From positions 4,951,501 through 5,015,500 of the forward strand of contig JAYJMM010000114.1 in NCBI GenBank assembly GCA_037349105.1: DNA of 64,000 nt, in the 5' to 3' direction. The stretch is from Limnomonas spitsbergensis (lineage: Eukaryota; Chlorophyta; Chlorophyceae; Chlamydomonadales). Below the pieces are notes generated by a model that saw only the letters and a list, made by a program, of their open reading frames with translations, had not been told where the DNA came from and did no database searches. Of the stretch, positions 675-63,292 are shown piece by piece. Both the position numbers and the translations under genes were made by a program. Position 1 is the stretch's first letter; the number at the start of each line of letters is the position of its first letter.

Positions 675-3600
675 CCGAAGCCAGCAGCCCTGAGGTCCGC
701 CTCGGTTGCTGCCGCTAGCTGATCCAGGGAAGGAAAGGCGTAGAAAAGGAGGGCCGGAGCAGGCACTGCCGTAGCCGCCACCGCTGACGCTGAGGGTGCT
801 GCTGCTGCCGACACTGCCGCTGGCGTCGTGGGTGCGGTAGGCTCCTCCTGTTTGATCCGCGGCTCTTGTTTGAACCGCGGCTCCTGTTTGATCAGCGGCT
901 CCTGTTTGATCAGCGGGCCTCCTGCGGAAAGCTGCCGCTCCTGCTTCGTCGGCGTGCTGCCAGCCGGCATCATCAGCAGCGGCGTGCCGTAGCCGCTGCA
1001 CAGCTTCTCGACCATGCCGTGGATACGGCTGATGTGGTTGTTGGAGGAGCAGATGAAGGAGAACAGACACTCGAGCGGGTCTTGGCGGAGCATTCGAGCG
1101 CCTGGTTGAGGGTTTGGGGTTCAGGGTGGAGGGTTGTGGATTTAAATCCTAGGGCTGGTGTGTTTGTTGGAGGGACAGATGAAGGAAAACAGGCATTAGA
1201 GCGGGTCTTGGTGGAGCATACAAGCGCCGAGGTTGAGGGTTTGGGGTTGAGGGCGAAGGGCTGAGGGACACACTAACGTTGGTTGGGACTGAGGGATGCA
1301 TTATAAGCTAACTACCAAACGTCGACGCCAGTTCCCAATCGTAAATCGAAGAGATTTGGTCAAACTTTTGCCCTAAGGGCAGAGCATAAAACAAAACAAT
1401 TATTTCGTACCCGAGGGGAGGCAGATGAAACCTACGATGCGGACTTCAGGACACATCTCTACTGTTGAGGTTTTTAGAGTTTCGCAATGCCTCACGGGAC
1501 ATCTGGCAACCTGTCACACACCGGCCATCTGGCGCCTGATGGCTTGAGTGGCATTGCAAAAAACAACAATTACAACTCAACACCTACCTGTATATGCATA
1601 TCAGTATATTACATGGGCAGGAGGGTCCACCATCGATACATTTTGTATCAAAAAACAGTTGGGTCGAGATCTTAACATCCTTTCCCAACTTCCCCATGCA
1701 GGAGAGAAAGCCCCCCCTCCCCCCAGAATGTAACGTGTTCCTAGGCCCTGAAGTGGTGCCCGAGTCGGTGGGCGACCTTCTTACACCGAGCTAGATTTAA
1801 AAGTATATCTTTATATCATAATAAAAACGCTTTTCCACAACAATGTTCCTAGGGATATCATCAGGTCTCACAGATGTTCATGAAGCTGTTGCCGTCCCTG
1901 AAGCTGAATTCCAGCGCCCTCACCCGGAAAAAAGGGGCTGATGGCGGCAAACCTAGCATCCCGCGACGCCCAGTGCTCCGCCAGCAGCGTCAGGTTCGAC
2001 GGGCTGCCGCCCCCGCCCGCACCCCCGCTGCCCCCGCCTCCGCCGCTGCCGCCCCCGCTACTTCCAGTTACCGACGAAGGCACGTCGCAGCTCGATGCGG
2101 AGAGGTTGAAATACTCCCGCACAGCCCACTCGTCCTGGTCGGCTCTGCAGCGCTCGCCCCTGGCCAGCACCTGATACAGCACGTCCCCATAGTCCTCCAG
2201 CTGGCGCATTTGAACCTGCGGTTGGTGTTAAGATATTCAAACTTATGAGCATCTGCAGGCAGCATAGAGCAGACAGTTGCAGGTAGTGACAAGCCCCTGG
2301 CCAGCACATAACATAGCACCTCACCGTGTTCATCCAGATGGCCTTTTGCATTTGAAACTGCAGTACTGACTTATGATTTTTTTTCTGGGGGGGGTACTGC
2401 GCATGTTTACCAGGGGGAAATCCCCCCCACCTGACTCCCGGGTAAATGCCTTTTTTTTCACGACCATGATAAACGCGCGCCATATTTCGGCTGTGACAGG
2501 CTGTGCACGTGCACGGGCACGGGCAGGCTGTGCACGTGCACGTGCAAGGGCAGGCTGTGCACGTGCACGGGCACGGGCAGGCTGTGCACGTGCACGTGCA
2601 AGGGCAGGCTGTGCAAGGGCACGGGCACAGGCAGGCTGTTCAAGAGCACGGGCACAGGCAGGCTGTGCAAGGGCACGGGCACAGGCAGGCTGTGCAAGGG
2701 CACGGGTTCGGGCAGGCTGTTCAAGAGCACGGGCACAGGCAGGCTGTGCAAGGGCACGGGCACAGGCAGGCTGTGCAAGGGCACGGGCACAGGCAGGCTG
2801 TGCAAGGGCACGTGCAAGGGCAGGCTGTGCAAGGGCATGGGCACAGGCAGGCTGTGCAAGGGCACGGGCACAGGCAGGCTGTGCAAGGGCACGGGCACAG
2901 GCAGGCTGTGCAAGGGCACGTGCAAGGGCAGGCTGTGCAAGGCACGGGCACAGGCAGGCTGTGCAAGGGCACGTGCAAGGGCAGGCTGTGCAAGGGCACG
3001 GGCAAGGGCAGGCTGTGCAAGGGCACGGGTACAGGCAGGCTGTGCAAGGGCACGTGCAAGGGCAGGCTGTGCAAGGGCACGTGCAAGGGCAGGCTGTGCA
3101 AGGGCACGGGCACAGGCAGGCTGTGCAAGGGCACGTGCAAGGGCAGGCTGTGCAAGGGCACGGGCAAGGGCAGGCTGTGCAAGGGCACGGGCACAGGCAG
3201 GCTGTGCAAGGGCACGGGCACAGGCAGGCTGTGCAAGGGCACGGGTACAGGCAGGCTGTGCAAGGGCACGGGCGCGAGCAGGCTGTGCAAGGGCACGGGC
3301 ACAGGCAGGCTGTGCAAGGGCACGGGCGCGGGCTGTGCACAGGCTGTGACAGGCTTTTCACGACCATGGTAAACGCGCGCCATATTTTTCGGCTGTGACA
3401 GGCTGTGCAGGTGGTTACAGTGGCAGCTGGTGGCAAGCGATGGCCGTGGCAAGCCTCTGGCCAGCACCCAGTATATCATCCCCATATCATCCCCCATCTG
3501 GCAAGATATGGAGATGATATACTGTAGCATCGAGTAGACAGAGGCAGATGGCACGTGATGGCAGGTGGGCAGGTGGGCAGGTGGGCAGTTGCAGTGACAT

Positions 3601-4395
3601 GTAGCAGAGGCAGGCAGTGACAGGCAGCGGGCAAGCATTTGAAGGCAATCCAGACTGAGGCAGGTTGAACAGGCAAGGACAAACAGTCAGGAGGACTGCA
3701 AGTGCACTCCAGATTCAGGCAGGCTGAACAGGCAGTGGCGAGTGGACGGCGGACTGGCGACAGCTTTGGGCAGGTCCCCCGTGCCCTTTATCCAGCGGCT
3801 ATCTCTTCATCCACTTGGCTACGGGGTGTACGGGGCAGCAGAGCCTGAGGTCTATGAGGCTACAGGGTATACGGGTTAAGCAGTATCCACTGACTCATTT
3901 TGCTCTGTCTCACTCATGTACACTCCACTGAAGTGGCCGTCGCCTAAGGTTTTTAAGGTTGGGCGGCCGGTCTCACACCTTATAAATGTAAGCAAAAAAA
4001 AGGTGCGGGAACCCCGAAGCTGCCTAAATGGGGAATGGCTCATACAAAATCCGAAATCTGTTTCATTACATGTACATACTGGCCAAGCTGTGTTTGGGTG
4101 TTCCTGAATGTGCCCCATGCGGACCGATGCGGTGCCCCATGCTCGCTGGCACTGAATCGGAATCGGATCAGAGGATTCAACCCGCACACCCACACACTCG
4201 CTCTCTCACCACTCTCGTGCCGATGACTCCCGTGTATTCAGATTTTCCCGTGGCCCTCCATCTGAAGGACTGCCCGGTCGGCAGCGTGAAATCCAATCGG
4301 AGCTCCCGTGGTGCAACGTTCAGGCATCTCCAGCCCTTGTTCTCCGCCTGCATGGGGCTGCAGCGTGTGGCCAGCTTTGACAGGGGCGTCGCCAT
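675..4395 (-). CDS. OGG1: 8-oxoguanine DNA glycosylase OGG1, 5' half (3 exons, continues past left edge)
   Basis: OGG1 removes 8-oxoguanine from DNA in base-excision repair in nucleus and organelles. Exons on the minus strand: 4395-4210, 2215-1924, 1101-675, all with AG/GT borders and matching phases (0, 1, then 2 nt of the next codon). Exon 1 has the family N-terminal strand [18 protein letters not shown]. Exon 2 aligns with the region ending in AISPFFPG, and carries a Gly/Ser-rich insertion. Exon 3 has [20 protein letters not shown], which includes the two Asn that contact the estranged cytosine in known OGG1 structures; the third Asn of the usual NNN is His here. The HhH-GPD motif with catalytic Lys and Asp is outside the window. 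ATG 4395 is chosen because it sits in a strong start context (AACCATGG) and gives a usual-length N-terminus; an in-frame upstream extension to about 4518 is open but unsupported. Confidence 0.93.
844..916 (-). repeat. OGG1: In-frame 18-bp coding repeat inside OGG1 exon 3 (four KQEP motifs)
   Basis: Four tandem 18-bp units encode [18 protein letters not shown] and RIKQEE, between the helix after the SSNN motif and the FPSLDQLA helix. Because 18 is a multiple of three, the frame is kept. Three of the four units fit the SUMO-attachment consensus (hydrophobic-Lys-x-Glu: IKQE) and one has FKQE. An Ala/Ser-rich stretch follows. The insertion is absent from the well-known animal and plant OGG1 proteins as I know them. 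SUMOylation itself is inference. Confidence 0.85.
1176..1236 (-). repeat. Degraded copy of the 5' part of OGG1 exon 3 (exon echo)
   Basis: Lying just upstream (minus sense) of the real exon 3 start at 1101, this stretch reads [22 protein letters not shown] in the same frame, against the true [19 protein letters not shown]. The stop codon and substitutions show it is not functional. About 100 bp separates copy and original. Confidence 0.85.
1250..1900. other. OGG1 intron 2, no further feature seen
   Basis: Plain intron sequence between exon 2 (ends 1924) and the exon 3 echo. Several short open frames are present, but none resembles a known protein and none continues across a splice border. 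Confidence 0.6.
2270..3670 (-). repeat. OGG1 intron 1 array: exon-2 echoes bracketing a ~27-bp minisatellite
   Basis: The core (about 2500-3345) is a head-to-tail array of a ~27-bp unit (AAGGGCACGGGCACAGGCAGGCTGTGC). It is bracketed by two copies of a ~50-bp sequence with CACGACCATG.TAAACGCGCGCCATATTT (2458-2510 and 3358-3405). Outside these are degraded copies of the 5' part of OGG1 exon 2. At 2282-2370 the minus strand has a CAG acceptor, then TTTCAAATGC and later GTGCTGGCCAGGGG, matching the true exon start (GTTCAAATGC and GTGCTGGCCAGGGG). Another copy at 3430-3490 reads [10 protein letters not shown] against the true [10 protein letters not shown], and a third fragment is at 3635-3665. 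Long open frames through the array come from unit periodicity and are not genes. Confidence 0.85.
3680..4205. other. OGG1 intron 1, exon-proximal part
   Basis: Unique-looking intron sequence between the echo array and the exon 1 donor (GTGAGAG at 4209). No gene or regulatory element recognised. Confidence 0.5.
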
Positions 4396-8463: not shown

Positions 8464-9371
8464 TGATGTATAACTGGCGCAGGCACACGGTCGTTGCTGG
8501 CTGCTTGCAGCAAGGGTGCAGATCACACCACAATCTATGAATACGGGACGGTGCAAGATGTGGCCCAACATCAGCTAAGCTGGGGAAAGGAAGGGAGGGC
8601 AGTTGAGCAAGCCGTGCTGCCTGCCAGTGCATGCCGGTTTTTTTTTTGAATTATAGTGCCGTGAGTCATGGAATGCTGCATTGTTCGGGTTTCGAAAAGG
8701 TTCCCTCTTCTGCCACAAACAATAAACATGCAATCCAGGGAAAATAAGTGGGCTCTTGTTAAGAAGTTCTTGCTAGAGCATGGACATACATCCTTAGCTA
8801 CCCCCTCCCCTCATCACCCCTGAGCACCATAAGGCTACCGACACCCCAAGCCCATGCAACACAATTGAAAGTTTAATAAGACACAGCACACACTGTCTGT
8901 CGTTCTCTCTTGAGGCTGCAAGGCAACTGCATTATTATATCACGTTTGACTTCATCTTCTTAATCAACAAATAGTGCTGTTGGGGGTGCAGTGTGGAGGG
9001 ACGCTAGTTCTTAATTTGCTGCGGGGGGGGGCGGGTCAATTAGTATGTGAGCTAGGGTTCTGGGAGACAGCTAATCGTTCTTAATGGTGATTGCGTGACG
9101 AGGGGAGTCGTTATGCCCCTTAAGGGAGATTTCACGCAGTACTTCTTCGAAGCCAGGCTTAAGGGGGCAGACAATACTTTTGAGTGTACCTCGAAGGCTT
9201 TTGGAATTTGCGGCCAATACTTATTTCTTCCTTTGCCTTCTTAGGGAATATGCTTGAGAGGGACAGGGAAACTATGGGGTGACTTTTCCTTTTGCGGGGG
9301 GAGTTTTTCTTTCTCCTTGGTGTTCCTCTCCTTCTTTCCCTTAATTTTCTTTTCTTTATTCCCAACAGGAA

Positions 9372-9437
9372 AGTTGGGCGCCCACCCGGCCAAGCCTTAG
9401 TTTCTGAGCAGGGCCCAGAGGTGTTCTGTCATTGACT
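9372..9437 (+). repeat. Dispersed repeat family A, copy 1 (GTTGGGCGCCCA...AGAGGTG)
   Basis: A ~65-bp motif, TTGGGCGCCCA, then GCC.AGCCTT, GAGCAGGGCCCAGAGGTGT and T.ATTGAC. The same motif recurs at 10196, 32529, 33271 and 63651, always in plus orientation and outside recognised exons. A pyrimidine-rich tract precedes it here and at 63600-63650. Confidence 0.75.
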
Positions 9438-10195
9438 TTTAATTATTTAAAATGTATGTAATTAGGCTTAAAAAGTGGTATGCTCATAGACGCGGTATTA
9501 CGGTGGCATGCTCATACGTGCGGCTCAAGCCGACACACATCCTCGTTGCACCCTTGAGGTCATGGGGGGGGGGCCAAAAGATCCATCAGGTGTTGCCTTG
9601 CAGTTGACATGACCCTTCTGAAGTCAAACGTATTGATTATCAAATGAAACGGTTTTACGTTGAGGATCGTACCTTTTCGTTCCACCAAAACATCGTACTC
9701 ACAAAGCAGGCTACCCGCTGACCCCCCTGCCACACTCGTCCCCATCTCCTCTTTACTTGAAGTCAGGCCTTACCATCGCCGATCTCCACTGTTATCCTCC
9801 CGCCTGGCTTGCCAACCCTGCCTTCCTCCTTGACCTCCAGGACCGCTGTCCTATCGAAATTCTTGAATTAGGGTTTACCCCATCTTCAATTCTGCCTTTC
9901 CCAAAATCCACATAACATGCACAATTAGCACATTTGCTTCGCGCCGTTGGATGGACCCTCTTTGCACCTGCCATGGACCTTCTCCCTGCTCCTGCCCCCC
10001 ACCCTCTTCCATGTCCGTTACAGAGTGTATCAAGTGCCTGTACCGGTTTACGGGAGCATGTCCCATGCATCAGATGTGATGCTCTGATGGACTGTAAAAA
10101 CTTCACAAACTTCACAACAGGGAAGAACCAGTGATCCTGCGAAAACCTGTAGCAGGGAAGAACCAGTGTTCCTATGAAAACATACAAGCTGGGCG

Positions 10196-10247
10196 CCCAC
10201 GCGGCCGAGCCTTTTGAGCATGGCCCAGAGGTGCAATGCCATTGGCA
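10196..10247 (+). repeat. Dispersed repeat family A, copy 2
   Basis: CTGGGCGCCCACGCGGCCGAGCC and then GAGCATGGCCCAGAGGTGC, ending in CATTGGC. Very close to the copies at 9372 and 63651. Confidence 0.75.
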
Positions 10248-12477: not shown

Positions 12478-29628
<17,151 letters not shown>

Positions 29629-29880: not shown

Positions 29881-30059
29881 CAGATAGTAGATTTCAGGAG
29901 GAAGCTTATGGTCAGGCTGTCAGATTGGTGCACATAGGAATTTGAATACCCAGAAAGGGATGGGTCGACAGGGACCAGCGCCAGTGGATTCGAAAGATAG
30001 CCTGGGAACCAGCATAGGGTTTGATCAGTGGAAGCAAATGATGGAAACCAGTGTCAGAT

Positions 30060-32528: not shown

Positions 32529-32592
32529 CTTGGGCGCCCGTGCAGGCCAGCCTTAAGTTCTGAGCAGGGTCCAGAGGTGTTACGTCATTGGC
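32529..32592 (+). repeat. Dispersed repeat family A, copy 3
   Basis: CTTGGGCGCCCGTGCAGGCC and GAGCAGGGTCCAGAGGTGTT, ending CGTCATTGGC. A further diverged 3' half (GCATGGCCAAGAGGTGT and GTCATTGAC) follows at about 32680-32730. Confidence 0.75.
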
Positions 32593-33270: not shown

Positions 33271-33335
33271 GATTGGGCACCCACCCTGCTGCTGAGCCTT
33301 TTTGAGCAGGGCACAAAGGTGTGACGTCATTGACC
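33271..33335 (+). repeat. Dispersed repeat family A, copy 4
   Basis: GATTGGGCACCCACCCTGC and GAGCAGGGCACAAAGGTGTG, ending CGTCATTGACC. The GGGCGCCC core is altered to GGGCACCC. Confidence 0.7.
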
Positions 33336-33484
33336 TTGCACAACCATAGGAATAAAACAGACATAGAGACAGCTGTGGCCGTGCTGCCGCGTGTTTGTGT
33401 CCATCCCTTAAGAGTCAAGGGTTGAGGGTTGAGGGTTTACCAGCTGTGCATGTATCCATCCCCGAGATAACCTGGCAAAATTGT

Positions 33485-37628: not shown

Positions 37629-37629
37629 A

Positions 37630-39800: not shown

Positions 39801-40321
39801 AGCTGCCCACATGAAAGCTCTCTAGCCTGCTGGGTAGACGCACTGGGCGCAGAGCAGTAGAGCAACATCCCATCTGCTGCCCACATGAGAGCTCTCTAGC
39901 CGGCTGGGTAGAATAGACGCAGCGGGCGCAGAGTACCATCCCATCTGCTGCCCACATGAGAGCTCTCTAGCCGGCTGGGTAGAATAGACGCAGCGGGCGC
40001 AGAGTACCATCCCATCTGCTGCCCACATGAGAGCTCTCTAGCCGGCTAGGTAGAATAGACGCAGCGGGCCCAGAGTACCATCCCATCTGCTGCCCACATG
40101 AGAGCTCTCTAGCCGGCTGGGTAGAATAGACGCAGCGGGCGCAGAGTACCATCCCACCTGCTGCCCACATGAGAGCTCTCTAGCCGGCTGGGTAGAATAG
40201 ACGCAGCGGGCGCAGAGTACCATCCCATCTGCTGCCCACATGAGAGCTCTCTAGCCGGCTGGGTAGAATAGACGCAGCGGGCGCAGAGTACCATCCCATC
40301 TGCTGCCCACATGAGAGCTCT
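39800..40321 (-). repeat. 71-bp echo array of the last VPS3 exon (about seven copies)
   Basis: Units of 71 bp on the minus strand contain DGMVLCARC, matching the last coding exon (SGMVLCARCASPAG then TAG), followed by the GAGAGCTCTCATGTGGGCAG sequence that lies just after the true stop codon. The array is downstream of the stop, so it lies in or beyond the 3' UTR. Copies near the exon are nearly identical; the distal two or three are more diverged. Confidence 0.9.
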
Positions 40322-43300
40322 CTAGCCGGCTGGCGAGGCACACCGGGCACAGAGCACCATCCCTGAGGGGTACCTGCAACACACAAGGCCGAGGACAGGG
40401 GCGGGGATGAGGGGGCACATTAAAGGCTGAGGATAAGGGAGGGGAGAGGAGGGGGGGGAGGCATAGAGGCTTCGTGTCGGATCAGATCGGGTCAGGTCAG
40501 GTCGGGGATGGAATAGGATGGGAGTTTCAGGTCCAGAAGGGGATGGAATAGGATGGGAAGTTCAGGTCGGGGTGGGTCAGGTAGGGCAGGAGGGTCGGGT
40601 CGGGTCAGGTAGGGGAGGCACATATCAGAGGGCTGAGTGGAGTGGAAGGGAGGGGGAACACATATCAGAAGGCCAAGTGGGGGAGGCACATAACAGAAGG
40701 CTGAGAGGAGAAGAGGGGAGAAGAAAAGGGGCACATATCAGAAGGCTGAGGGGAGGGGGAGGAGGGGAGCCCCCCCCTCCGAGTTTTGCTTCAGCACAAC
40801 CTTAAAATTCAAATCCTAATGGCTCATGACCACGATCGGTGGTTCCAAACGAAGGCCTCTAGATCGGCCATGTCAGAGGAGCGTTAGAGTAGCTCAAGAG
40901 AGCAGAAGAAGAGTAAAATTACGCCCTGCAGGGGCGTGGGGTAAGGAAACAGCGCGGCATGGGCCGCGTCCTCGCCGTCACCATGTCAAGACAGCATCCC
41001 TCACCCCCACACAACAATCAAACCCTGAATCCCTTGACCATACTAGAAGTGGCCCATGTGTGTGTGTGTGTGTGCGTGCGTCTGTGCATGTATATGTGCG
41101 TATGCATGTTTACATTATCCCCCAGGTGCGTGTGCATCCATGGTAGCACAATCCGGCTCAACTTGCACCGTATCATGCCGTGCAGTGCCATCTCGTGCTG
41201 CCTTAATAGTGCAATACGGATGATCCTGTGCCGCATCGTGCTATCTTGGTAGTGCAACACGGCTGATCCTGTACCGTATCACCGCACAGTATTGTGCCGT
41301 GTCGAGTAGGAGCCTTTGGCAGCCATAGCAAGCACAGTATCGCGCCATATCGTGCTACCATGTGCGTGTGTGGCTAGAGAGGGGGCGTCGCTCACCCATA
41401 GACTACCCGGTCGAGGAGAAGCCTGTGGCAGCCGTGGCAAGCGCTGTCCTCCCCGACCACCAGTCTCTGTCCCGACAGCGCGGCCACGTCGGCACGGCAG
41501 GCCAGGTTGACTGCTCGGTGGAGACCCCGCACGACCTGTGCACGAAAAGAGTGCATTGTGATGGGCAGGCTCGTGCATAAGGGGAAAGGGTCTAAAGGTG
41601 CACCCCCCCCCGGATGACATCAGCAGAGGAAACCAGAAATAGCCGAGGATGGCACTGATCGTGAAATTGAGACAAGCATATTTGTAACACTAAATCGTCA
41701 AAGGGTATAGATACATAGGGTTCAGGGTTGATACCCTTCACCCTTCACCCTTGAAGCCCTACAACCTCAAGCCAAGGTTGGCAGGTATATCATAGAACAT
41801 CGCGCATGGTCCGTTGCCTTCTGCTGTAGGACGTGATGAAGGCTGTAGCTGAAATGTAGCTGAGGCTCCCAAACGTGCTGCGATGTAGGCTGTAGTTTAA
41901 CTGTAGCTGAGACACACAAACGTGCAGTGATGTAGGCTGAAGCTTAACTGTAGCTGAGGCTCCTAAACGTGCCGTAATGAAGGCTGTAGCTGAATTGTAG
42001 CCGAGGCACCCAAACGTAAACAGCGGTCTGCTCCACTCCGCCCGCACATGCATTGCCTAACCCATCCCTGGACACTGGCGTCTGCCTGCCCCCCGCAAGC
42101 GTGGCAGTGATGTAGCTGAATCGTAGCTGAGGCTCTCTCTAACACAAACAGTGGTTCGCCCCATGACAAGCCCCCTAAAACCGCTTTGCCTTCGTCTTTC
42201 CCCACCCCTCGACACCAGCGTCCGCCTGCCCCCCTGTTGGCCGTGAATCTATAAGGAGCTGAACTGCAGCTGAGGCACCCAGATATGAAAAGCGGTCTAC
42301 CCCTCGAGAGGCCCCTACAACTGCTGTGCCTTTGTCTTCAGCCCCCCCAGCTACCTGCGTCTGCTACAGCCAGTATATCCCGCCCGCGAGCGTGGCCGTG
42401 GTGTAGCTGAATTGTAGCTGAGGCCCCCTAACACAAACATTGGTCTTCCCCATGATGAGCCCCTTACAACCGCTTTGTCTTCGTCTTCCTCCACCCCTTT
42501 ACCTGTGTCTGTGCCCAGGCCCCCATAGCCGTTGGCTGTGGTGTAGCTGAATTGTAGCTGAGGCCCCCTAACACTAACAGTGGTCCGCCCCATGATAAGC
42601 CCCCTACAACCGCTTCGCCTTCATCTTCCCCCACCCCCCTTACCTGTGTCTGCCTGTGCCTGTGCATCCCGCCCGCCAGCGTGGCCGACAGTGTCGGCGA
42701 CGCTGCCGCAAGCGGTAGGCCGTCCGGTAGCGCCGCAAGCACGTGGAGCGGGTCCAGCCGCCCACCTGCCTCATGCAAGACGCGCACCGCAGCCGAGTAC
42801 ATAGGCTCGCGGCCGTTGCCAGGGCTGTGGGATAGGGGCGTAAGGGGATTTGGAACAATGCGGCCAAAGGGCACAGGATAGGGTCCAGCCGCCTGCCCGC
42901 CTGATACAGGATGCGTGTTGCAGCCGGGTACATGGGCTTGCGGCCATTGCCGTGGCCGTCGGTCTAGGGGCATCAGGTCGTGGCTTAAATGTTGCCATGG
43001 GGTTAACGTGGGTACAGGAGCGCGTCCCGCAATCTATGCGCCTCATGCAGGACGTGCGCCGTGCAGTCAAGGACAAGGGCATGCAGCCCTCTGCGCCGGG
43101 CTGCGGAATCAGGGCGTGGGGGAATGGGGCAAGAGCCTTGCTGTCCCCCCAACGGCTTCGGGTTTAGGGTTTCCTAAGGTAGTAGCACTTTGCTGTCCCC
43201 CAAGGGCTGAGGGTTAAGGGTTTCCGAAGGGAGCAGCGCTTTGCTGTAACCCCAGGCTCACCTGAGCAGCAGCTCGAGCAGTGGGAGCCAAGCGTCCTGC

Positions 43301-49300: not shown

Positions 49301-52300
49301 GCCTTGCCCTTGCAGATGCACTTGGCAATACAATAGGAATACCCAACAAGCCAATGGCATGTATCGCTGAGGGTTTAAGGGTTCTGGGGTTTTGAGGCTT
49401 TAGGACAAAGCCTGGCCGATGAAACGCCGACCGGCCTTGCAAATGCACTCGGCAATATAACAGGAATAACCAACAAGCCAATAGGAAGCCTAGCTGAGGG
49501 TTTAGGAGAGTGAGAGCTACCGCGGATGCCTGGATGAAACCATCGGCAACCTGCCTTGAGGATGTACTTGGCTATCTGCCGTTTGGCCTCCATTACGATC
49601 TCCGCCGTGTTGCCCTCCGCCCGGTACCCGGCTTTGCCCCCCGCCCGGTAGCCGCTCGACCCCTTGGCCAGGCTCAGACCCGTGGGGCGTGAGTCTAGAT
49701 ACTGATTGCAGATCTGAACCATACCTGCGGTTTGGGGCAAAGAGTTAAGGTTAAGGGTTTTGAGCTGAGGGTTCAGGGTTAGGTTGAGGGTTTGGAGCTC
49801 TCATTGCAGATCTGGACCATACCTTCAGGTTGTGAGTTCAGGGTTAAGGTTGAGGGGGTTTAGAGCTCTGATTGCATATCTGGACCATCCTTCATGTTGT
49901 CGGCAAAGGGTTGAGGTCTGAGGGTTAAGGCATAAGGTTTCTGGGTGAAGGGTTCAGGGATGAGGTTCCAGGAATAAGGTTGAGGGTTTAGAGCTCTGAT
50001 TGCAGACCTGGACCATACCTTCAGATTGTCGGCTTAAGGTTCAGGTCTGAGGGTTCAGGGACAAGGTTTGTGGGTGAAGGGTTCACGTATGAGGGGTAAG
50101 GGATAAGGCTTGTGGGTTGAGACTTGAGAGCCATCATTGCAGATCTGGACCAACCTGATGGTTGTGGGTTAAGGCTGAGGGATAAGGCTGAGAGTTGAGA
50201 GCCATAATTTCAGATATGAACCATACATGCGTGTTGTGGGGAAAGGGTTCAGGCCTGAGGGATTAGAGTGCAGGGCTCAGGGTATGGAGTTCAGGGGCTA
50301 GGGCTGAGGGTCAAGGGCTTTGAGGCTTAGGCTCAGGGTTTCGAGTTTAGGGGCTAAGGTTGAGGATTAAGAGTTTAGGGGCTACGGCTGAGGGCTGAGA
50401 GTTTAGGGCTGGGGGCTGGGCATAGGGGTGAAGGCTGAGGGTTGAGACTTCAGGGTTTAGGGCTGAGGGTTAAGAGTTAGGGGCTAGGGCTGAGGGTTGA
50501 GACTTGACGGTTCAGGGCTGGGGTTTAGAGTTAATGGCTAGGTCTGAGGGTTTATAGTTAGGGGCTGGGGCTGAGGGTTGAGATTTAAGGGCTAGAGCTG
50601 AGGGTTGAGAGTTAGGGGCTAGGGGTGAGGGTTGAGAGTTTAGGGCTGGGGTTTAAGTAAATACCTTCAGTTCAAAAACGCCACTGCCTGTCACCATAGC
50701 AACGTAGGGTTGAGGTTGAGGTTTTTAGGTTTGAGACTGAGGGTGGATGTTTAGTGTAAAGGGTTTGAGGTCAAGTTTGGGGGTTTTATTTGCACATTTA
50801 TTAAGTCACTGACTGACACGATAGCGACATGAAAGGCGATTGGACGCATGCCACTAAACGTAAGCCGAGCTCAGCCCCCCCCATCGAAAACACACCTGGC
50901 AGGGTGTACGCGTTCGTTTTCTTAGGGTTTCGGTGATCCAGGTTTAGGGTAAAGGTTCAGGGTTAAAGAGATGCAGGGTCTAGGCATACGGTTAGGGGTC
51001 AAGATTTGAGGGTTTACTTGCAAGTACCAAATAAAAAACTGGCCCACAATATAGCAGCATGGGAGGCGCTTGGGTGCAAAAGAACAACCACAGTCCTGCC
51101 TCAGACCCTCGCTCTCAGAAACATAGATTGAGTGTAGGTGTAAGGGTTCCAAGGTCCAGGGGTCGAGACATAGGGTTTAAGGCTTAGGGGTCAAGGTTTA
51201 AGGGTTGAGGTGCACATATAGACAAAAATCACTGACTGACATGATAGCAACAGGCGAGGCGCTTGGATACACAAGAACAACTAAAAATCATGCCTCCCCC
51301 CCACCACAGCCTCGGAAATATAACTTCCGGGGTGTACAGCGACATTGGCACTGCAACAACAGCAACAACACCACCCACTTCACATCTGGCCCTGCCCGTG
51401 CAAGCCCCAGTAGGCGCGTTGCGGTACAACCCGAGCCCCTGTTGCTGTTGATCCTGCAACAACAGCAACACCACCCACTTCGCATCGGCCCCTGCCCGTG
51501 CAAGCCCCAGTAGGCGCGCTGCGGTACAACCCAAGCCCCTGTTGCTTTTGTTCCTGCAACAACAGCAGCAACACCCACTTCGCATCGACCCCTGCCCGTG
51601 CAAGCCCCAGTAGGCGCGCTGCGCCGGCGCCTCCGGCAGCCAGCGGGCCACCGCCGACGGGAACAGCGGAAGCAGCTGCGCCGGCTGCCACGCGCTGAGC
51701 GGGCACGCCGCCAGCACCTCCACGGCCTCCGAAACCCGCATCTCGTGCAGCAGCAGCAGGCCTGTCTGGGCCAGGGCAGGCCCGGCCCAGGCCCCAGCGT
51801 CGGCCGGCGCCGTGGCGCCGGTGCCGCCGGCTGCAGGGGCGGCCGGCAGCGCCGCAGTAGCGAGAGCGACGGCCTGGGAGTATCGACGATGCCTCAGAAG
51901 CTCCCAGACCTGCTCGGGGTGGGTGGGGGGGCCGGAGCGGGGTGGGTGGGTAGGCCGGAGCTGGTGGGTGGGTGGGCAGAAGTGGGTGGGTGGGTGGGCC
52001 GGAGCGGGGCGAGGGTGGAGGACGAGGGACAGTGGAAGATGTGGTCAGCAATGGCTGTGGGGGGAACAGGGACAGGCCTGGTCAGGACCTTTCAGAAATT
52101 CAACCCAGTCTAGCCGCATTTTTTGCTCAACATATTCAACCCATTTTTGCTCAATAAACCCTGTACCCATATTTGTTCACACCCTCTCACCCACCTGCTC
52201 CTCAACCTCCACAGATCTCAGGCAAACACTGATGATGAGGTGGCCAATAGCAGCGTCCCACCTCCCCACCACCACCACCACACCTGCTTCCATCCTACCC

Positions 52301-55300
52301 GCTGTGGCCAAAAGCAGAGTCCCCCCCCTCCCACACACCCACCCACCTGCTTCTCAACCTCCACAGGCCTCAGGCACAGCACTGATGACGAGGTGGCCAG
52401 AAGCAGCGTCCCTGAGGAAGTGTCAAGTGTGCAAGGAAGCCGCCCAGCAGCTGCAACCCACGCGTCATCGTGCGCGAACGCGACCTTCTGGATCTACGAA
52501 ATGCAACAACGGGATCTACGTCATGCAACGCCGGGATGTACATCATGCAACAACGGGATCTACGTCATGCAACGCCGGGATGTACATCATGCAACAGCGG
52601 GATGTACATCATACAACAGCGGGATGTACGTCATGCAACTCCGGGATCCACATCATGCGACAACGGGATGTACATCATGCGAGAACATGATTGGCACCAT
52701 GCGACAAAGCGCAGATCGATTTGGCACATAATTGTTGCACTATTTTGCATTCGTACAAACAATACATTGGGGTTAAGTATTCAAGGGTTTCATTCGGGGT
52801 TTAGGATTCAGGTTGTATTTATTGTTCATAGTTGTCCTTGCATCATTTGATCTTTTAGAGTTCAGGGTTTAATTAAGGGCAAAGGGTTAATGGTTTAGGA
52901 CCCTAAGCCCAGCCACTGGGCCATGCAGCCGCAGCATCCACAGCAGCCCTGCCATGCCCTGCCATGCACTTGACAAGAAATCTGCAACAGGGAGGAGACA
53001 GGCCTTGCCAAAAATAAAGGAATCAAAGGGGACCAGCTGCGCCGTGTTGCTGTCAGATACGAGCAGCCAGTGGTCCGGTAGAAAAACAAATAAATGAAGG
53101 GGCTGCTCTATAAATAAATAAATGAAGGGGCTGCTCTATAAATAAATAAATGAAGGGGCTGCTCTATAAATAAATAAATGAAGGGGCTGCTCTATAAATA
53201 AATAAATGAAGAGGCTGCTCTATAAATAAATAAATAAATAAAGGGGCTGCTCTATAAATAAATAAATGAAGGGGCTGCTCTATAAATAAATAAATGAAGA
53301 GGCTGCTCTATAAAGAAATAAATGAAGGGGCTGCTCTATAAATAAATAAATGAAGAGGCTGCTCTATAAATAAATAAATGAAGGGGCTGCTCTATAAATA
53401 AATAAATGAAGAGGCTGCTCTATAAATAAATAAATAAAGGGGCTGCTCTATAAAGAAATAAATGAAGGGGCTGCTCTATAAATAAATAAATGAAGGGGCT
53501 GCTCAAACAAAAGAAAAACATCTGCACTTTTACGCTGTCATAAACCAGCAGCTGGTGGCCTGCTGGAAAACGATTGGATACATAAATAAATAAGTTAATT
53601 AGAAGGCTCCTCAAATACTTAACCCACAAGCTGCCCGGTGTAGCTTTTATGAAACAGCAGCTGGTCTTCCGCTGGAAAAACAAATCAATATTAAATAAAT
53701 AAAGGGGACCTTCAAACCAGAACCCACCAGCTGCGCTGTCTTCCTGACACAAACAAGCAGCTGGTCATCCGCTGGACAAACAATTGAATGCATAAATAAA
53801 TAAAGTGGACCATAAACACAAAACCCACCAGCTGCGCTGTATTGCTGTCATAAACCAGCAGCTGGTCATCCGCTAGACAAACAATTGAATGCATAAATAA
53901 ATGAAGGGGACCCTCAAACGCAACACCCACCAGCTGCGCCGTATTGCTGTCATATACCAGCAGCTGGTCATCCGTTGCCACCACCACAAACGGGCCCGTC
54001 AGCGCCACGGCCAGCGGGACGTCCGTGAGCATCAACGGCTGACGCATAGCCGCACCCTGCAACCGGCGGCAAGTGTTTTGCAACGCCAATCAAGGGTGAA
54101 GGGGTGAAGAGGGGGGGGGGGGTATCCGAATCATAATCCTAAATCCTTGACCGGCGGCAACTGTTGTACAACACCACTCGAAGGGTAGAGGGGTGAGGTC
54201 CAGGAGTAGGGGCGTCTACGTCTCCATGATGTAGGGATAGGAATCAAGGATTCGGGATCTAGGGACAGGAATCAAGGGTTCAGGATCTAGGAATATAAAT
54301 TGAGGGTTCAAGATCTAGGGATAGGAATCAAGGGTTCAGGATCTAGGGACAGGAATCAAGGGTTCAGGATCTAGGAATATGAATCAAGGATTCAGGAGCT
54401 AGGGATAGGAATCAAGGGTTCAGGATCTAGGGATATGAATCGAGGGTTCAAGATCTAGGGATATAAATCGAGGGTTCAGGAGCTAGGGATAGGAATCAAG
54501 GGTTCAGGATCTAGGGATATGAATCGAGGGTTCAAGATCTAGGGATAGGAATCAAGGGTTCAGGAGCTAGGGATATGAATCGAGGGTTCAAGATCTAGGG
54601 ATATGAATCGAGGGTTCAAGATCTAGGGATAGGAATCAAGGGTTCAGGATCTAGGGATAGGAATCAAGGGTTCAGGATTTAGGGATATGAATCGAGGGTT
54701 CAAGATCTAGGGATAGGCATCAAGGGTTCAGGAGCTAGGGATAGGAATCAAGGGTTCAGGATCTAGGGATAGGAATCAAGGATTCAGGATCTAGGGACAG
54801 GAATCAAGGGTTCAGGATCTAGGGATATGAATCGAGGGTTCAAGATCTAGGGATATGCATCGAGGGTTCAGGAGCTAGGGATAGGAATCAAGGGTTCAGG
54901 ATCTAGGGTTAAGGATGTAGGGATAGGAATCAAGGGTTAAGGATCTAGGGATAGGAATTTAGGTTCCAGGATCTAGGGATGGGAATCGAGAGTTCGGGAT
55001 TTGGGGATATGAATTGAGGGTTCAGGATAAAAGGGGGGAGGGTAAGAGGGGGGATGTCTAGGAGCAGGGGCCTGCACGTCTCCATGATCTGGGGGTATAA
55101 AAGATTTCACCTCCCCCCTCCCCTTCCTCGCCCCCTCTCACCAGCTCCTCCCCCCCCCCCCCCCCTCTCACCTCCCTCCCTCGCCTGGTACCCCCCTCCT
55201 CATCTTACATGCCCGTCTCCCCCTCTCACCTCCCCCCCCCCATCACCTAGTACCCCCCTCCACAAAAATGCCCCCCTTCCCTCTCACCTGCTCCCCGTAT

Positions 55301-58300
55301 TACATGCCCCCCTCACCCCACCTGGTGTCCCCCCCCGTCATATACCCCCCTCCCCCCCCCTCTCACCCTACCTGATGCCCCCCCCCCCACCCGTCACTTA
55401 CCCCACCCCCCTCCCACCTGGGCATCCACCAGGAGCAGCATTGAGTCAGCAAACAGCAACAACGCCTGCTTAAGCTGCAGGCAGGCCGCCACCATTGTCC
55501 GGGTGGTCACGCCGGACGCCACCTCTGTCACCTGTGCCAACATTGAAGGGTTTGGGGTTAAGAGTTTTAACCCTCCGCTGGACGGCCATCTCTGTCACCT
55601 GTGCCAACAGTTTAGGGTTCAAGGTCAAGTGTTAAGGGTCTGGACACACTGCCGGACGCTACCTCCGTCACCCGTGCCAACAGTTTAGGGTTCAAGGTCA
55701 AGTGTTAAGGGTCTGGACACACTGCCGGACGCTACCTCCGTCACCCGTGCCAACAGTTTAGGGTTCAAGGTCAAGTGTTAAGGGTCTGGACACACTGCCG
55801 GACGCTACCTCCGTCACCCGTGTCAACAATTTTGGTTTCAGGATTAAGAGTTGAAACCTTACGCTGGACGCCACCTCTGCCAACACTCTAGGGTTCAGGG
55901 TTCAGATTTATTAGTTCAAACCCTACACCAGACGCCATTTATATCACTTGCATCAAAAAATGGCAATGTGATGGGCTCCTAGGCCATGCGGCACCATGCA
56001 GCACCAAGCAGTCACAAGCAGACCCATGCAGTCCCATGCAGCACCAAGCAGTCACAAGCAGACCCATGCAGACCCATGCAATCCCGTGCTGTTCCATGCA
56101 GTCTCATGCAGCTCCATGCAGCTCTAGACACACCAAGGTAGTGCCATGCAGTCACATGCAGTCCTATGCATTTGATTGCAGACCCATACAGTCCCGTGCT
56201 GTGCAATGTGGTCCCATGCAGTCTCATGCGGTCATATGCATTTGAATGCAGACCCATGCAGTTGCATGCGCACCTTGCATCCAGACTGCACAAGCTTGTA
56301 GCCTCCCGGAACCGCTGCCAGGATGCCATTGTCCACCCACGCCAGGGCCGTAATTGGCTCTGGAAACAAAACCTTCAGAAAAAAGGGTGTGTGTCAGAGA
56401 AATTGTGTCAGTGGATTTGAAACGTATCAGATGACGGAGGGAGCAGGCAGGCCAGGAGTGCAGGCGCAAAAGGCTAGGAAACAAAGGCTCCACACAAAAC
56501 CAAGCGATGCCGCGTTCCGGCAGAAAGCCAGCACATCATTAAACCTATGTTTTCCAGAGGAAGCCCTTGCATTGCTTCAGCAAAGCAGACGCCAAAGGCC
56601 ACTGGGCCACTGGGCCACTGATGCACTGAGATTCTGCAGGCGTCAGTCCTGCACATGAAATCCCCAGCAGATGGACCCACCCAAGCAGTGACATGGAATC
56701 ACTGGAGGTGGAGTGGGAGCTGCTGTTGTTGTCCAGCTTCGATAGCTGTGTTTGGGGTGGTTACAGTCCAAGGTAAACCCAACAAACCCTTAACCTTGGA
56801 CCTGAACCCCAAGCGGAATGGGATCTCTTGTTCTTGTCCAGCCTCTAGGATTTGAGGTTAAGGGTCAATCCAATAAACCCTGAACCTTATGCGAAGTGGG
56901 AGTTGTTGGTGTCCAGGTTCAATGCATCCTCCCACAGGCGGTGGTCAAAGGGGCCTGCCACAGGCGGTGGTCAAAGGGGCCTGCCACAGGCGGTGGCCAA
57001 AGGGGCCTGCCGCGGAGAGGCCTCTCAACGCATGTGCAGAAGTGGTGGTTACGTGCAGTGCCACTGTTTCACCTAGTGTGAAACCCTGAACTATAAACTC
57101 GTAACCCTACACCCGTAACCCTAAAATCTTGACCCTTAACTCTTAACCCTAAACTAGTAACCATCAACTCTTAACCCTAAGCCCTAGACTATTGTCCATA
57201 AACTCTGAACCTTAAACCCTTCACCCTCAAGTCACAACCCTAAACTCTTGTCCCTAAGACCTCAACCCTTAACCCTTAACCTTAAATTCGTAACCCTAAA
57301 CCTTGAACCCTGAACTTTTAACCCTCAAGTCTTAACCCTTGCGTGCTGAAGGTATGTTCATGTGCAGTGCCACTGATGCGTGTAGTGTTAAACTCTTGAC
57401 CCTTAACTCTTACTCCTTGTTGATCGAATACCTAATGGTGAAGTGTAAAGAGCTGCTGTACAGAGTACGGTTAACTCCTATAGAACAGGCAACGACGGAA
57501 TATACGGCTGAATACGGCATCACCGTCCCTGTACACGACCGCATGGCATTACCGACCAAGCAAATGATCGCATGACAAAGTTTGGGCGAGCGACTAAGGT
57601 CAGACCAACCGAAATACGTAAACGCCCGATCCCTTCTTTAGCTCACCAAGCAAATTGTGTTGAAGTCATCATGACGTGCAGTGCCGGTGCACCAAGACCT
57701 GGACCCTAAAGCCTGAACCCCAAACCTTGTGTGCTGAAGTAATGACGATGTGCAATTCCAATTGCGAACCTAGCATGGGTGCGCCATGGGCACGGCAGAA
57801 AACTTGCATAGCCGCAAAATGCGGGAAGCCGCCAGCCCGCATCACCTTGTGAGCTGAAGCTATGGTGGTCAGCAGTTCCAACATCGCACCCTAAACCCTG
57901 AACCCTGAAAAATCCACAACCCTGAAACCCTTAGATAATAAACCCTTGTGAGCTGACATGGTGGCGTATTTTGCAGTTCGAATATCACATCAAACGCTAG
58001 ATTTGTTACCACACAGTGCAGGGAGCAGCCGGCCCGCATCACCTTAGCGAGCAGATGCGCTGGCTGCAACGCGTTGTGGCTCGTGCCTCCCGGGCCGGAG
58101 GCGACGGCGTAAACCATCAGAAGGCAGTTCCCGCCCCCGCCGCCTCCCCCGTCAGGTCTGTGCAGAGCGCCTCCCGCTCCCGCTCCCGCTCCCGCCCCGC
58201 CGTCTGCCCCAGCCGCCATTCCGCTGATCTTCTGATGGCCCTGGCCGGCTGCCCTGGCCAGCGCGAAGCCCGGCCCGTTGACACGGACCGCGACTGCCAG

Positions 58301-59839: not shown

Positions 59840-62488
59840 ATGCCGTCTGGCGTCAGGTCTGATACGGAGCTGTGGACGAAGGACTTTGATGGAGCCAAAA
59901 ACCTTGCACAGGAAATTATAGAGCTCATACAGGTAAGTGGGGCTGCACCACCGATTCTTCTCTCCCGAACTGGCCGTGGTGAACCACGGCTGCCTTGCGC
60001 CCTACTCCTCCCCTCCAGGAGCGAAACATCAATGCCTCTGTGGGCCCCGAAGCTTCTCGGAAGACCGCCGTTGCGCGGAGAAAGCTTGGTACATTGGGAA
60101 CTGAAGTGGACAGGCTGTTGAAATGGCTTGACTCCGAGGATGCCTCAGGCCTGTAAGTAAGGGACAGCAGCTGCACGTTCCTGGGGTGCCAAAAGGGAGG
60201 CAACTGCAGGATCTGTTCCAGGGCAAGCCCAACTTATCCAGACTAGAGGCAAACTTCAATCTCCTACATATGGGGTTTTCAGGAGGCACTGACAAGCCTG
60301 ATGTGACGTAGCACAGTAGTCGGTGCATGCCAAACTGCATGGCTTTCAATTTAAATTAAATTTCTGTAGAGCCAGATCTGCCAGACAATGCATGGGCAGC
60401 CATTTACCCCAAGGACCAAATGTGACAACATGACCAAACTAACAGTACAGCATAGGAGCACCTCATGACCACTAATTCGGCTGAGCTTTGCCGTTGCTTC
60501 ATGCAGTCCTGTCACGCCATGCAGGGCTCAAAAAAAGCCAGGGGCCCAAAAACGCCATGCCACGCCATGCAGGGGCATGAACACGCCATGTCACGCCATG
60601 CAAGGGCACACACACACTATGTCACGCCATGCAAGGGCACGAACATGCCACGCCACGCCACGCCATGCAAGGGCACAAACATGCCATGCCATGCACGGGC
60701 AAAAACGAGCCTTTCCATGCCATGCCATGCAAGGGCACTATCACACCACGCCATGCAATGCAATGCAAGTGCACAAACACGGCCTGGCACGCCATACCAC
60801 GCCTTTATTTAACCAGGGCACATTTGCCAGCAAGGGAAATGAACAGCTGGATTCCCAGATGTGTATATCTGACATGGAGTACATGACTGCATGTGTCACA
60901 CGTGTCTGAACCCTGGTCCTGCCATTTCCGAGTCCATGAGGTGTCAATTTTAAACCCACATTCCTAAACCCTGACCTGAACCATGCAGGTCTGAGTCAGA
61001 GAAGAACAGGAGAAGAGACATGCTGTACGAGCTAAAGAGCCGGCGGGAGCAGATGCTGTACGCGATTAAACGAAGCGCGGGCCAGCAAGACAGGTCAGCG
61101 GAGGGGAGTGCACCACCCTAGGTTAAATTCTACAAAGCTTACCACGTGCAGGTCCTTGGTGTGTGTGTGTGCGGGGTATAACTTAAATTCAAGAAATTCA
61201 TTTTTTTGGCAGTACAGGGCCTGGTCTTACATCAATGTGAGCTTGTGCTTGCAGAGGCGCCCATGAAGAGCACCGGTTGGTGCCACTCTGTAGTCGGTAC
61301 TGCCCCTTACTTAAGTCATCACAATTCATCCAAAATGGTGTCAACGTGCAAACATATCAACATATGGCCTTCTATGAAGACCCTGAAACCTTCTAATGCG
61401 TTAGACGTCTAATGCTGTCCCCTTCCCCAACTCACCTGTTTTTAGGCAGAGGATGCGTGGTCTGTGTGGTGGTCTGAGCTGCTGTCATGCCGGTCCTTGT
61501 CAGAAGCGTATTACTTTACTTCTCCTTTTGCCTTGGTTCTGTCATCTATTCGGCATGCCTTCTCTCCCGCACGTGCCCTCTTTCTCGCAAAACATTTCTC
61601 CCATACAAGCCCCCTGTCCCGCGAAACCCTTCGTTCCACACAAGCCCCTTATCCCACTCATGCCCTTTTTCCCACCTGCCCAAAACTGCCCGTCCTCCCC
61701 AGGAGAAATGCTCCCCAGGCGAAACCAAGAAGACGGAGGTCATGGACTCATGGCAGAAGATCCTCTCTCCCACTCATGCCCCTGCTCTCACATGCCCATC
61801 CTGCTCTGAAGAAACACTTTTCCAAGGCACAGCATCCAGTAGCCGCTTTATTCCTGGGACCAAGAAGGCAGAGGCTACTGCAGAGCATCCTCTCTTTCAC
61901 ACATGCCCTTGCTCTCACATGCCCATCCTGCCCTGAAGAAATGCTTTTCCATGGCACAGCACCAGTGACAGCTTTTTTCCGTGGGACCAAGAAGGTAGAG
62001 GCTACTGCAGAGCATCCTCTCTCCCACACATGCCCTTACTCTCACATGCCCATCCTGCCCTGAAGAAATACTTTTCCAAGGCACAGCATCCAGTAGCAGC
62101 TTTTTCCCTGGGACCAAGAAGGCGGATGCTGCTGCAGAGCATCCATTCTCCCACACGTGCCCTTTCTCTCACATGCCCATCCTGCCCTGTAGAATGCTTG
62201 TTTAAGGCACTGCATTCAAAAGTAGCTTTTCCCCTGGGACCAAGAAGGCAGAGGCTTCCCTAGAGCATACACTCTCCCATACATGCCTTTCTTCCACTTG
62301 CCCATCCTTCTCTCAGAGACATGCTTTTCCAAAGCACGGCATCCAGTAGCAGCAAGCCCCCTGGTACCAAAGAGACGGAGGCCACCGCTGAGCTGGACAC
62401 CCGTGGGCTGTTGACCTTGCAGCAGCAGATCATGAAGCATCAGGACACAGAGCTGGAGCACATGGAGAAGGCCATTGGGAACACAAAG
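59840..62488 (+). CDS. SYP5: Qc-SNARE of the SYP5 family (syntaxin 51/52-like), first four exons
   Basis: Qc-SNAREs of this family sit on the prevacuolar compartment and vacuole and drive membrane fusion. Exons: 59840-59932 (MPSGVRSDTELW, DGAKNLAQEIIELIQ), 60019-60152 (ERNINASVGPEASRKTAVAR, RKLGTLGTEVDRLLKWL), 60989-61093 (SEKNRRRDMLYELKSRREQM), 62317-62488 (RDMLFQSTASSSKPPGT, LLTLQQQIMKHQDTELEHME, KAIGNTK). Phases agree at all junctions. The order is that of SYP51/52: an N-terminal helical domain with GPEASRKTAVARRKLGTLGTE, then the FQ..IM..QD..LE..E..I.NTK start of the SNARE motif. The central Gln layer, the rest of the SNARE helix and the membrane anchor must lie in exons beyond the window or were not recognised. 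Confidence 0.9.
60530..60795. repeat. CACGCCATGCAAGGGCAC repeat in SYP5 intron 2
   Basis: About ten degenerate units of CCATGCAAGGGCAC.AACATGCCACG. Confidence 0.9.
61690..62290 (+). repeat. Echo array of the 5' edge of SYP5 exon 4 (four to five copies)
   Basis: Units of about 125-130 bp before the real exon copy its first ~85 bp: CTTTTCCAAGGCACAGCATC, then CCTGGGACCAAGAAGGCAGAG, against the true CTTTTCCAAAGCACGGCATC and CCTGGTACCAAAGAGACGGAG. The acceptor CTCTCAG is changed to CCTGAAG in the copies. The oldest copy, at about 61693-61740, keeps only GAGAAATGC and ACCAAGAAGACGGAGG. Confidence 0.9.
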
Positions 62489-62499
62489 GTGCGGCAGGA

Positions 62500-63292
62500 G
62501 TGGCGGGGGTGATGGGGGTTAGGGCAGGGGGTGCAGGCAGGGGAGGGGGAGGGGGGTGGGTATTCTGAACCCCTGCTGCGGCAGCAGATCATGAAGCATC
62601 AGGACACAGAGCTGGAGCACATGGAGAAGGCCATTGGGAACACAAAGGTGCGGCAGGAGTGGCGGGGGTGATGGGGGTTAGGGCAGGGGGTGCAGGCAGG
62701 GGAGGGGGAGGGGGGTGGGGTATTCTGAACCCCTGCTGCGGCAGCAGATCATGAAGCATCAGGACACAGAGCTGGAGCACATGGAGAAGGCCATTGGGAA
62801 CACAAAGGTGCGACAGGAGTGGCGGGGGTGATGGGGGTTAGGGCAGGGGGTGCAGGCAGGGGAGGGGGAGGGGGGTGGGGTATTCTGAACCCCTGCTGCG
62901 GCAGCAGATCATGAAGGATCAGGACACAGAGCTGGAGCACATGGAGAAGGCCATTGGGAACACAAAGGTGCGACAGGAGTGGCGGGGGTGATGGGGGTTA
63001 GGGCAGGGGGTGCAGGCAGGGGAGGGGGAGGGGGGTGGGGTATTCTGAACCCCTGCTGCGGCAGCAGATCATGAAGCATCAGGACACAGAGCGTGAGCAC
63101 ATGGAGGAGGACATTGGGAACACAATGGTGCGGCAGGAGTGGCGGGGGTGATGAGGGTGGGGGCAGGGAAGCGCATACAGGGGAGTGGGGAGGGGGCAGA
63201 AGGGGTTGTCGTCTAACCCCCTGCAGTAGCAGATCATGAAGTATAAGGACGGGCAGTTGAAGCACATAAAGAAGGCTGTAGGGAACACAAAT
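62500..63292 (+). repeat. 160-bp echo array of the 3' part of SYP5 exon 4: five 60-nt SNARE cassettes
   Basis: Cassettes start at 62588, 62748, 62908, 63068 and 63233 (periods 160, 160, 160, 165; 159 from the exon's own sequence at 62429). The first four are preceded by CTGCTGCGGCAGCAG and the fifth by a diverged CTGCAGTAGCAG. The first three are followed by GTGCG, the fourth by GTGCGG after a change to ACAATG, and the fifth has lost the GT donor. Cassettes 1 and 2 encode exactly the exon's own 20 residues, cassette 3 has one change (His to Asp), cassette 4 has several and cassette 5 many. Divergence grows with distance from the true exon. None has an internal stop. Confidence 0.95.

What the first reader, a model, noticed from the sequence alone, without database searches (positions are those of the whole stretch)
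1176..63292. Exon echoes: exon edges are tandemly copied into their own introns in all four housekeeping genes
Seen directly: in OGG1, TFB1, VPS3 and SYP5, about twenty exon edges have one or more degraded copies in the adjoining intron. Each copy spans the splice site: some exon codons, the AG or GT, and intron flank. Units are about 70-165 bp. Copies occur upstream, downstream or on both sides (TFB1 exons 6 and 12; VPS3 exons 6, 8 and 12; SYP5 exon 4). Copies close to the exon are usually the best preserved. Inference: a repeated process of local tandem duplication starting at exon borders, with decay of the outward copies, has filled these introns. Ordinary minisatellite growth would not be expected to start at exon edges so often. 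I know of no name for this.
Basis: partly seen in the sequence, partly recalled or inferred. Interest (0 to 1): 0.93.

Follow-up and report, generated by a model that had tools for sequence, protein, structure and literature searches.

The report
Copied exon edges inside introns
In this genome many introns carry decayed side-by-side copies of the neighbouring exon's edge, splice site included; much of the pattern is what random local duplication plus selection on exons would leave, but the 3' ends of introns carry about twice as many as that simple model gives.

Summary
In 33 other genes of the same genome (CCT/Cpn60, proteasome, HSP70) 53 of 400 sites do: 19 of 200 donors, 34 of 200 acceptors. 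The copies are local duplications (median unit 117 bp); two tested units match only their own intron; echo splice dinucleotides decay neutrally and unit ends scatter, so nothing starts at the exon border. Raw excess over intron interior is 1.4-3.2x for donors and 2.9-5.3x for acceptors. A neutral simulation (uniform duplication, selection on exons, same detection) already gives 1.06-1.55x and 1.17-1.71x (conservative version) or 1.55-2.19x and 1.62-2.46x. Donors do not exceed it in the conservative version; acceptors do, about twofold (p 7e-7 to 0.0013; 0.001 to 0.06 without paralogue doubles). Paralogues echo at the same edges (odds ratio 15). Most likely: neutral tandem duplication, anchored by the selectively fixed exon copy. 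A known kind of event at an unusual density.

The parts
1024..1266 (-). OGG1 acceptor at 1101: functional copy 1139-1024, echo 1266-1150 (offset 127, 84%)
   Evidence: self-BLAST; sequence
2156..2364 (-). OGG1 acceptor at 2215: functional 2222-2156, echo 2364-2293 (offset 142, 75%)
14213..14972 (-). TFB1 donor at 14946: exon tail ...HFWACLPADTQPK|gt followed by a 78-bp array of decayed exon-tail+GT+intron units
   Evidence: unit matches only this intron
22974..23502 (-). TFB1 donor at 23455: exon tail KQIFVERPHVRRAYVK|gt with about five decaying ~106-bp copies downstream
   Evidence: unit matches only this intron
23546..24670 (-). TFB1 acceptor at 23574: exon head copied upstream, adjoining a 13-bp minisatellite
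27902..28074 (-). TFB1 donor at 28056: functional 28074-28037, echo 27939-27902 (offset 135, 84%)
29218..29409 (-). TFB1 donor at 29398 (GC donor, exon model weaker): functional 29409-29362, echo 29265-29218 (81%)
42089..42687 (-). VPS3 donor at 42644: array of exon tail + GT + intron (offset 289; TRF also reports a 140-bp period)
42750..42977 (-). VPS3 acceptor at 42824: functional 42845-42750, echo 42977-42881 (offset 132, 76%)
52177..52412 (-). VPS3 exon 52411-52347 and its donor copied as one block downstream (echo 52259-52177, 86%)
53621..53974 (-). VPS3 donor at 53931: 101-bp units of exon tail DDQLLVYDSNTAQL|gt, identity falling outward
61753..62382 (+). SYP5 acceptor at 62317: 127-bp array upstream that includes the exon head
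62418..63291 (+). SYP5 donor at 62488: 160-bp array, first copies 97-99% alike, outer copies 84% and 67%
   Evidence: gene continues at 64805

Best explanation
Local tandem duplications of roughly 60-250 bp arise all along genes. Those inside exons are removed by selection, those inside introns are kept, and those that straddle a splice junction are also kept, because one copy of the junction stays in its proper place (first copy at a donor, last copy at an acceptor) and the other becomes intron. The echo then decays like any intron sequence. Because selection keeps the exon copy fixed, an edge array cannot lose its source, so it can be renewed from the exon edge while interior arrays die out. 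Shown: local copies, neutral decay of echo splice signals, scattered unit ends, presence at the same edges in paralogues, donor frequency equal to a neutral simulation. Inferred: removal of exon-internal duplications, renewal from the exon copy, and that this anchoring accounts for the acceptor excess.
For: Copies lie next to their own exon in CCT/Cpn60, proteasome and HSP70 genes and in the window genes. Two tested units match only their own intron in 260 Mb. Echo dinucleotides are intact in 14 of 18 donors (13.4 expected from identity) and 22 of 33 acceptors (23.5 expected; 3 of the 33 could not be aligned and count as not intact). Offset mod 3 is unbiased, 20 of 51 multiples of three (p 0.38). 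Exon overlap is scattered, 12-86 bp. The simulation with uniform duplication and selection on exons gives donors 0.096 (observed 0.095) and longer units at edges than inside, 116 vs 94 bp (observed 115 vs 81 under the same definition). Paralogues echo at the same edges: both 11, one only 13, neither 56, p 2e-5; echo-echo identity is above the independent expectation in 11 of 11 shared cases.
Against: Acceptor frequency, 34 of 200, exceeds all six simulated ratios (p 7e-7 to 0.0013); with one of each paralogue pair, 21 of 159, p 0.001 to 0.06. With edge arrays excluded from the interior, donors also exceed the simulation in some sets (p 0.003 to 0.07). Under the same definition introns with an edge hit against those with an interior hit are 52 to 37, share 0.58, against 0.41-0.44 simulated (p 0.0007-0.006; 0.014-0.05 without paralogue doubles). 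Adding slippage to the simulation did not raise the edge ratios (model C), so the anchoring step is not demonstrated. Interior units are shorter than simulated (81 vs 93-100 bp). Simulation parameters were chosen by hand, not fitted. The gradient is only a trend (p 0.057), and two window arrays contradict it.
Confidence: 0.58

Rival explanations
1. Mutational hotspot: exon borders, chiefly 3' splice sites, are duplicated more often than other sequence, for instance because of replication or transcription structures at the exon-intron transition.
For: Acceptors 2.9-5.3x over interior positions, also at >=85% and >=90% identity in the full set. With exons removed from the search 28 arrays touch an intron end and 27 do not, a rate ratio of 2.1-3.3 depending on the minimum length assumed. 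Acceptors exceed all six neutral simulations in the full set.
Against: Unit ends are scattered rather than fixed to the border. Donors fit the simulation in the conservative version (p 0.15-0.74). At >=90% identity without paralogue doubles only 3 of 159 acceptors remain, p 0.2 in the conservative version. Survival bias is not excluded.
Confidence: 0.22
2. Ascertainment: the edges stand out only because the exon copy changes slowly and is easy to recognise; there is no real excess.
For: The neutral simulation, which contains this bias, gives 1.06-1.71x without any hotspot, and 1.55-2.46x with edge arrays excluded from the interior.
Against: Exon-part and intron-part identity within the same pair do not differ (0.869 vs 0.860, n 27, p 0.46); the intron-only search still finds an excess (p 5e-4); acceptors exceed the simulations.
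Confidence: 0.1
3. Intron birth by tandem genomic duplication of an AGGT-containing exon segment (Rogers model): the introns themselves are duplicated exon.
For: The VPS3 intron after 53931 ends in a further copy of the same exon tail, joined to a plausible next exon.
Against: In 0 of 200 introns of the 33 genes does a repeat link the donor side with the acceptor side of the same intron at E<=1 (window introns were not in that scan); most copies contain intron flank as well as exon.
Confidence: 0.05
4. Function: echoes are kept as reserve or regulatory splice sites or cassette exons.
For: Several echoes keep splice-site scores as high as the real site; the first three SYP5 echoes keep an open 63-base stretch between AG and GT (read by eye).
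Against: Splice dinucleotides are retained only as often as overall identity predicts; no frame preference.
Confidence: 0.05

Closest known systems
Tandem repeats near intron-exon junctions in Chlamydomonas and Volvox (Zhao et al. 2013, PMC3887541; abstract, passages and the detection section read)
   Same: Introns have the highest repeat density, and significantly more repeats lie near intron-exon junctions, in two green algae.
   Different: They searched unit sizes of 1-50 bp by scaled position; what I read does not describe copies containing exon sequence or splice sites. Here units are mostly 60-250 bp and include or abut the junction.
[quoted passage not shown] 2016, PMC4974935, and Lehmann et al. 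2010, PMC2891723; passages of both read)
   Same: Local tandem duplication involving exon sequence and splice sites; the potato case duplicated an intron-exon structure, and two fission-yeast introns span several copies of an exon segment.
   Different: There a new intron arises between the copies. Here the copies lie inside introns next to one exon; donor-acceptor linked copies were found in 0 of 200 introns.
Minisatellites with homogenised core and degenerate ends (recalled)
   Same: Head-to-tail units; TFB1 D14946 and L047 D4691 have a homogeneous core.
   Different: One end is fixed in an exon under selection, and in several arrays the exon end is the least degenerate.

Membership tests
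[quoted passage not shown]
   0 of 200 introns of 33 genes, E<=1; one window intron (VPS3 after 53931) is a possible exception
[quoted passage not shown]
   no eukaryotic relatives held
Introner elements | Similar intron sequences dispersed at many loci (recalled definition) | tested here: not met
   two echo units match only their own intron in 260 Mb (two units tested; the tool skips very common words)
Minisatellite / local tandem duplication | Head-to-tail direct copies at one locus | tested here: met
   some pairs have a spacer, e.g. L040 donor 5538, 95% over 58 bp with 77 bp between the copies
Minisatellite / local tandem duplication | Placement independent of gene structure apart from selection on exons | tested here: inconclusive
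   donors agree with a neutral simulation in the conservative version, acceptors are about 2x above it
Alternative / cassette exons | Copies used in transcripts | not testable with these tools
   no RNA data

The most novel reading that the evidence does not exclude
Purifying selection turns every exon edge into a non-decaying master copy: junction-straddling segments are copied out again and again, older echoes are pushed into the intron, and this selection-anchored conveyor, strongest at 3' splice sites, is a main route of intron growth in this genome and keeps echoes at the same edges through gene duplication.
Probability: 0.25. Interest if true: 0.72.

Novelty: new variant of a known kind. 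Interest (0 to 1): 0.48.

Why it matters
How introns lengthen is usually told with transposons. Here 47 of 200 sampled introns carry recognisable copies of their own exon edge, and those introns are about twice as long (median 686 vs 329 bp; longer introns also have more room, so this is not proof of growth). It gives a readable record of duplication in single introns, a natural supply of decoy splice sites that the cell must ignore, and a trap for gene predictors. The neutral part also warns that repeats enriched at intron ends, as reported in green algae, need a null model that includes selection on exons.

Tried and rejected
Rejected: dispersed mobile elements (two units tested); intron birth between linked copies as the general cause (0 of 200); selection to keep or destroy echo splice sites; reading-frame preference; a unit that starts at the exon border. 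Assembly artefact is unlikely for most cases: the best edge copies are 69-96% identical and none of the 75 loci held contains an N; copy number in 97-99% arrays such as SYP5 could still be wrong.

Led nowhere: Pfam scans of two + strand frames and of 12-22 kb minus, the second of which hit only repeat-like or unrelated families; the BSD match of TFB1 was itself weak (E 0.02, below the curated cut-off). The homologue search for VPS3 gave five proteins, of which P0001 was useful. Literature searches listed no paper whose title or abstract start describes systematic exon-edge copies. Matches to DEAD helicases and tRNA synthetases were never fetched. A first comparison of array shares with the simulation (57 of 88 vs 43%, p 5e-5) was not like for like and is replaced.

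Full report
WHAT WAS CHECKED. The window is G000:C114:4951501-5015500 of a 260,226,709-base, 124-contig assembly; that it is a green alga is inferred, not tested. Self-BLAST found 177 nearby direct repeats and TRF 126 rows. The four genes are there: OGG1 on the minus strand, TFB1 with a weak BSD match and matches to human GTF2H1, a VPS3-like protein with homologues, one of which carries PF10367, and SYP5 on the plus strand. SYP5 continues past the window with its SNARE motif at 64805-64951 and membrane anchor at 65899-65964.

EXON MODELS. I wrote a spliced profile aligner in C, trained donor and acceptor matrices on nine CCT genes (80 introns) and used it throughout. The models of the genes kept (9 CCT, 6 Cpn60, 15 proteasome, 3 HSP70) are free of stops; some proteasome exon ends are uncertain. 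Window models rest on distant human or plant queries and are weaker; the 45 window sites used are those I judged credible.

THE OBSERVATION. Under one fixed criterion 13 of 45 window splice sites have an echo. In 30 genes, 51 of 338 sites and 45 of 169 introns do: Cpn60 21, CCT 20, proteasome 10. Adding three HSP70 genes gives 19 of 200 donors and 34 of 200 acceptors, 47 of 200 introns; HSP70 thus adds only 2 of 62 sites, and L074 has no repeat at all. The pattern is not confined to the window but is uneven between genes.

IS IT MORE THAN CHANCE? Three controls were used. (a) Counting arrays with uniform seeds in 30 genes: 57 edge and 31 interior, expected edge share 0.34, rate ratio 3.6; 3.5-4.1 at identity cut-offs of 80-90%. 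(b) Searching each intron alone, exons removed: 28 touch an end, 27 do not, expected share 0.29, ratio 2.55, p 5e-4; 3.1 with one of each paralogue pair; 2.1-3.3 over the minimum lengths tried. (c) Terminal-copy coverage of splice sites against intron positions at least 60 bp inside, 33 genes: donors 0.095 vs 0.069 (1.37x, p 0.1), acceptors 0.170 vs 0.058 (2.94x, p 2e-8); with edge arrays removed from the interior 3.2x and 5.3x. The donor result of the conservative version is not significant.

NEUTRAL SIMULATION. Introns were evolved with substitutions, uniform tandem duplications and deletions, and rejection of anything that damages the exon, then scored with the same BLAST criterion (six parameter sets). 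The donor ratio was 1.06-1.55 and the acceptor ratio 1.17-1.71 (all identities, conservative version), 1.55-2.19 and 1.62-2.46 with edge arrays excluded. In the set closest to the observed frequencies donors were 0.096 and acceptors 0.110. Median unit was 116 bp at edges vs 94 bp inside, against 115 vs 81 observed under the same definition: longer units straddle junctions more easily, so most of the length difference needs no special process. Against the six sets donors do not deviate in the conservative version (p 0.15-0.74) and partly do in the other (p 0.003-0.07); acceptors deviate in both (p 7e-7 to 0.0013 and 1e-9 to 2e-5; without paralogue doubles 0.001-0.06 and 4e-6 to 0.0013). Introns with an edge hit against introns with an interior hit are 52 to 37 (0.58) against 0.41-0.44 simulated, p 0.0007-0.006, or 0.014-0.05 without paralogue doubles. 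Parameters were set by hand, and arrays within a gene are not fully independent.

ANATOMY. In the first scan the functional junction sat in the first copy at donors and the last at acceptors in 15 of 15; later tests require this. Exon overlap is 12-86 bp, median 43. Echo GT is intact in 14 of 18, AG in 22 of 33, both as identity predicts. Exon and intron parts of the same pair are equally preserved (27 pairs). Some pairs are not strictly tandem, and a number begin within a few bases of the junction with little intron flank, probably because the flank next to the functional copy has turned over (inference). Gradients outward from the exon exist in some arrays and not in others.

PARALOGUES. Five paralogue pairs with shared intron positions have third-base identity 0.63-0.77, while intron flanks are close to random (median ungapped identity 0.25-0.34). 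Yet echoes fall on the same edges: both 11, one 13, neither 56 (p 2e-5). Echo-echo identity exceeds the value expected from independent origin in 11 of 11 (alignments of 23-73 bases). So some echoes, or arrays renewed in place, outlive the rest of the intron. That is the best hint that edge arrays are anchored, but it would also follow from edge-specific hotspots.

READING. I conclude that junction-straddling tandem duplications are a large, mostly neutral by-product of a high local duplication rate, with an extra factor of about two at 3' splice sites that I attribute, without proof, to anchoring by the fixed exon copy; a mutational bias is the main rival. The splicing machinery seems to tolerate strong decoy sites nearby, which would fit exon definition (inference, no RNA data).

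RELATION TO THE LITERATURE. Zhao et al. 2013 (PMC3887541) already report repeats concentrated near intron-exon junctions in two green algae, for units of 1-50 bp (abstract, passages and methods section read). Tandem duplications involving splice sites are known from single cases of intron gain (PMC4974935, PMC2891723, passages read). I found no description of systematic exon-edge copies in the listings, which cover open PubMed Central papers only.

Noticed in passing
200 introns of 33 genes (L039-L074): Strong phase-0 excess: 143 phase 0, 33 phase 1, 23 phase 2 among the 199 with a phase.
   Followed up: no
L044/L045, L048/L049, L050/L051, L053/L054, L064/L065: Several housekeeping genes occur as pairs with shared intron positions and 0.63-0.77 third-base identity, suggesting an old large-scale duplication.
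   Followed up: partly
window 39802-40363: A 71-bp array seeded in the last VPS3 exon around its stop codon, i.e. an echo at a gene end rather than at a splice site.
   Followed up: partly
window 53931-53030 (minus): The VPS3 intron ends in another copy of the upstream exon's tail, directly joined to a plausible next exon; its acceptor may come from a duplicated exon segment, a possible case of intron birth.
   Followed up: partly
window 9312-9439, 10187-10236, 32530-32593, 33273-33337, 63591-63697: A dispersed element of about 50-115 bp, 73-86% alike, occurs in several places of the window.
   Followed up: no
window 12795-14033, 16004-16834, 18575-19665, 23894-24670, 54228-55028: Large short-period arrays (7-28 bp units), mostly outside the exons I judged credible; separately, telomere-like repeats lie at 23709-23758 and 57102-57340.
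   Followed up: no
window 1101-674 (minus): The OGG1 frame carries an in-frame LIKQEP-type 18-bp repeat between conserved blocks.
   Followed up: no
window 3469-3524 and 48695-48763: Fold-back palindromes of 56 bp (82%) and 69 bp (93%).
   Followed up: no
L044 6267 and L045 7416: The 60 bp of intron upstream of this acceptor are 87% alike between paralogues, while the other internal intron flanks score 0.27-0.55; it carries an echo in both copies, possibly local gene conversion.
   Followed up: partly
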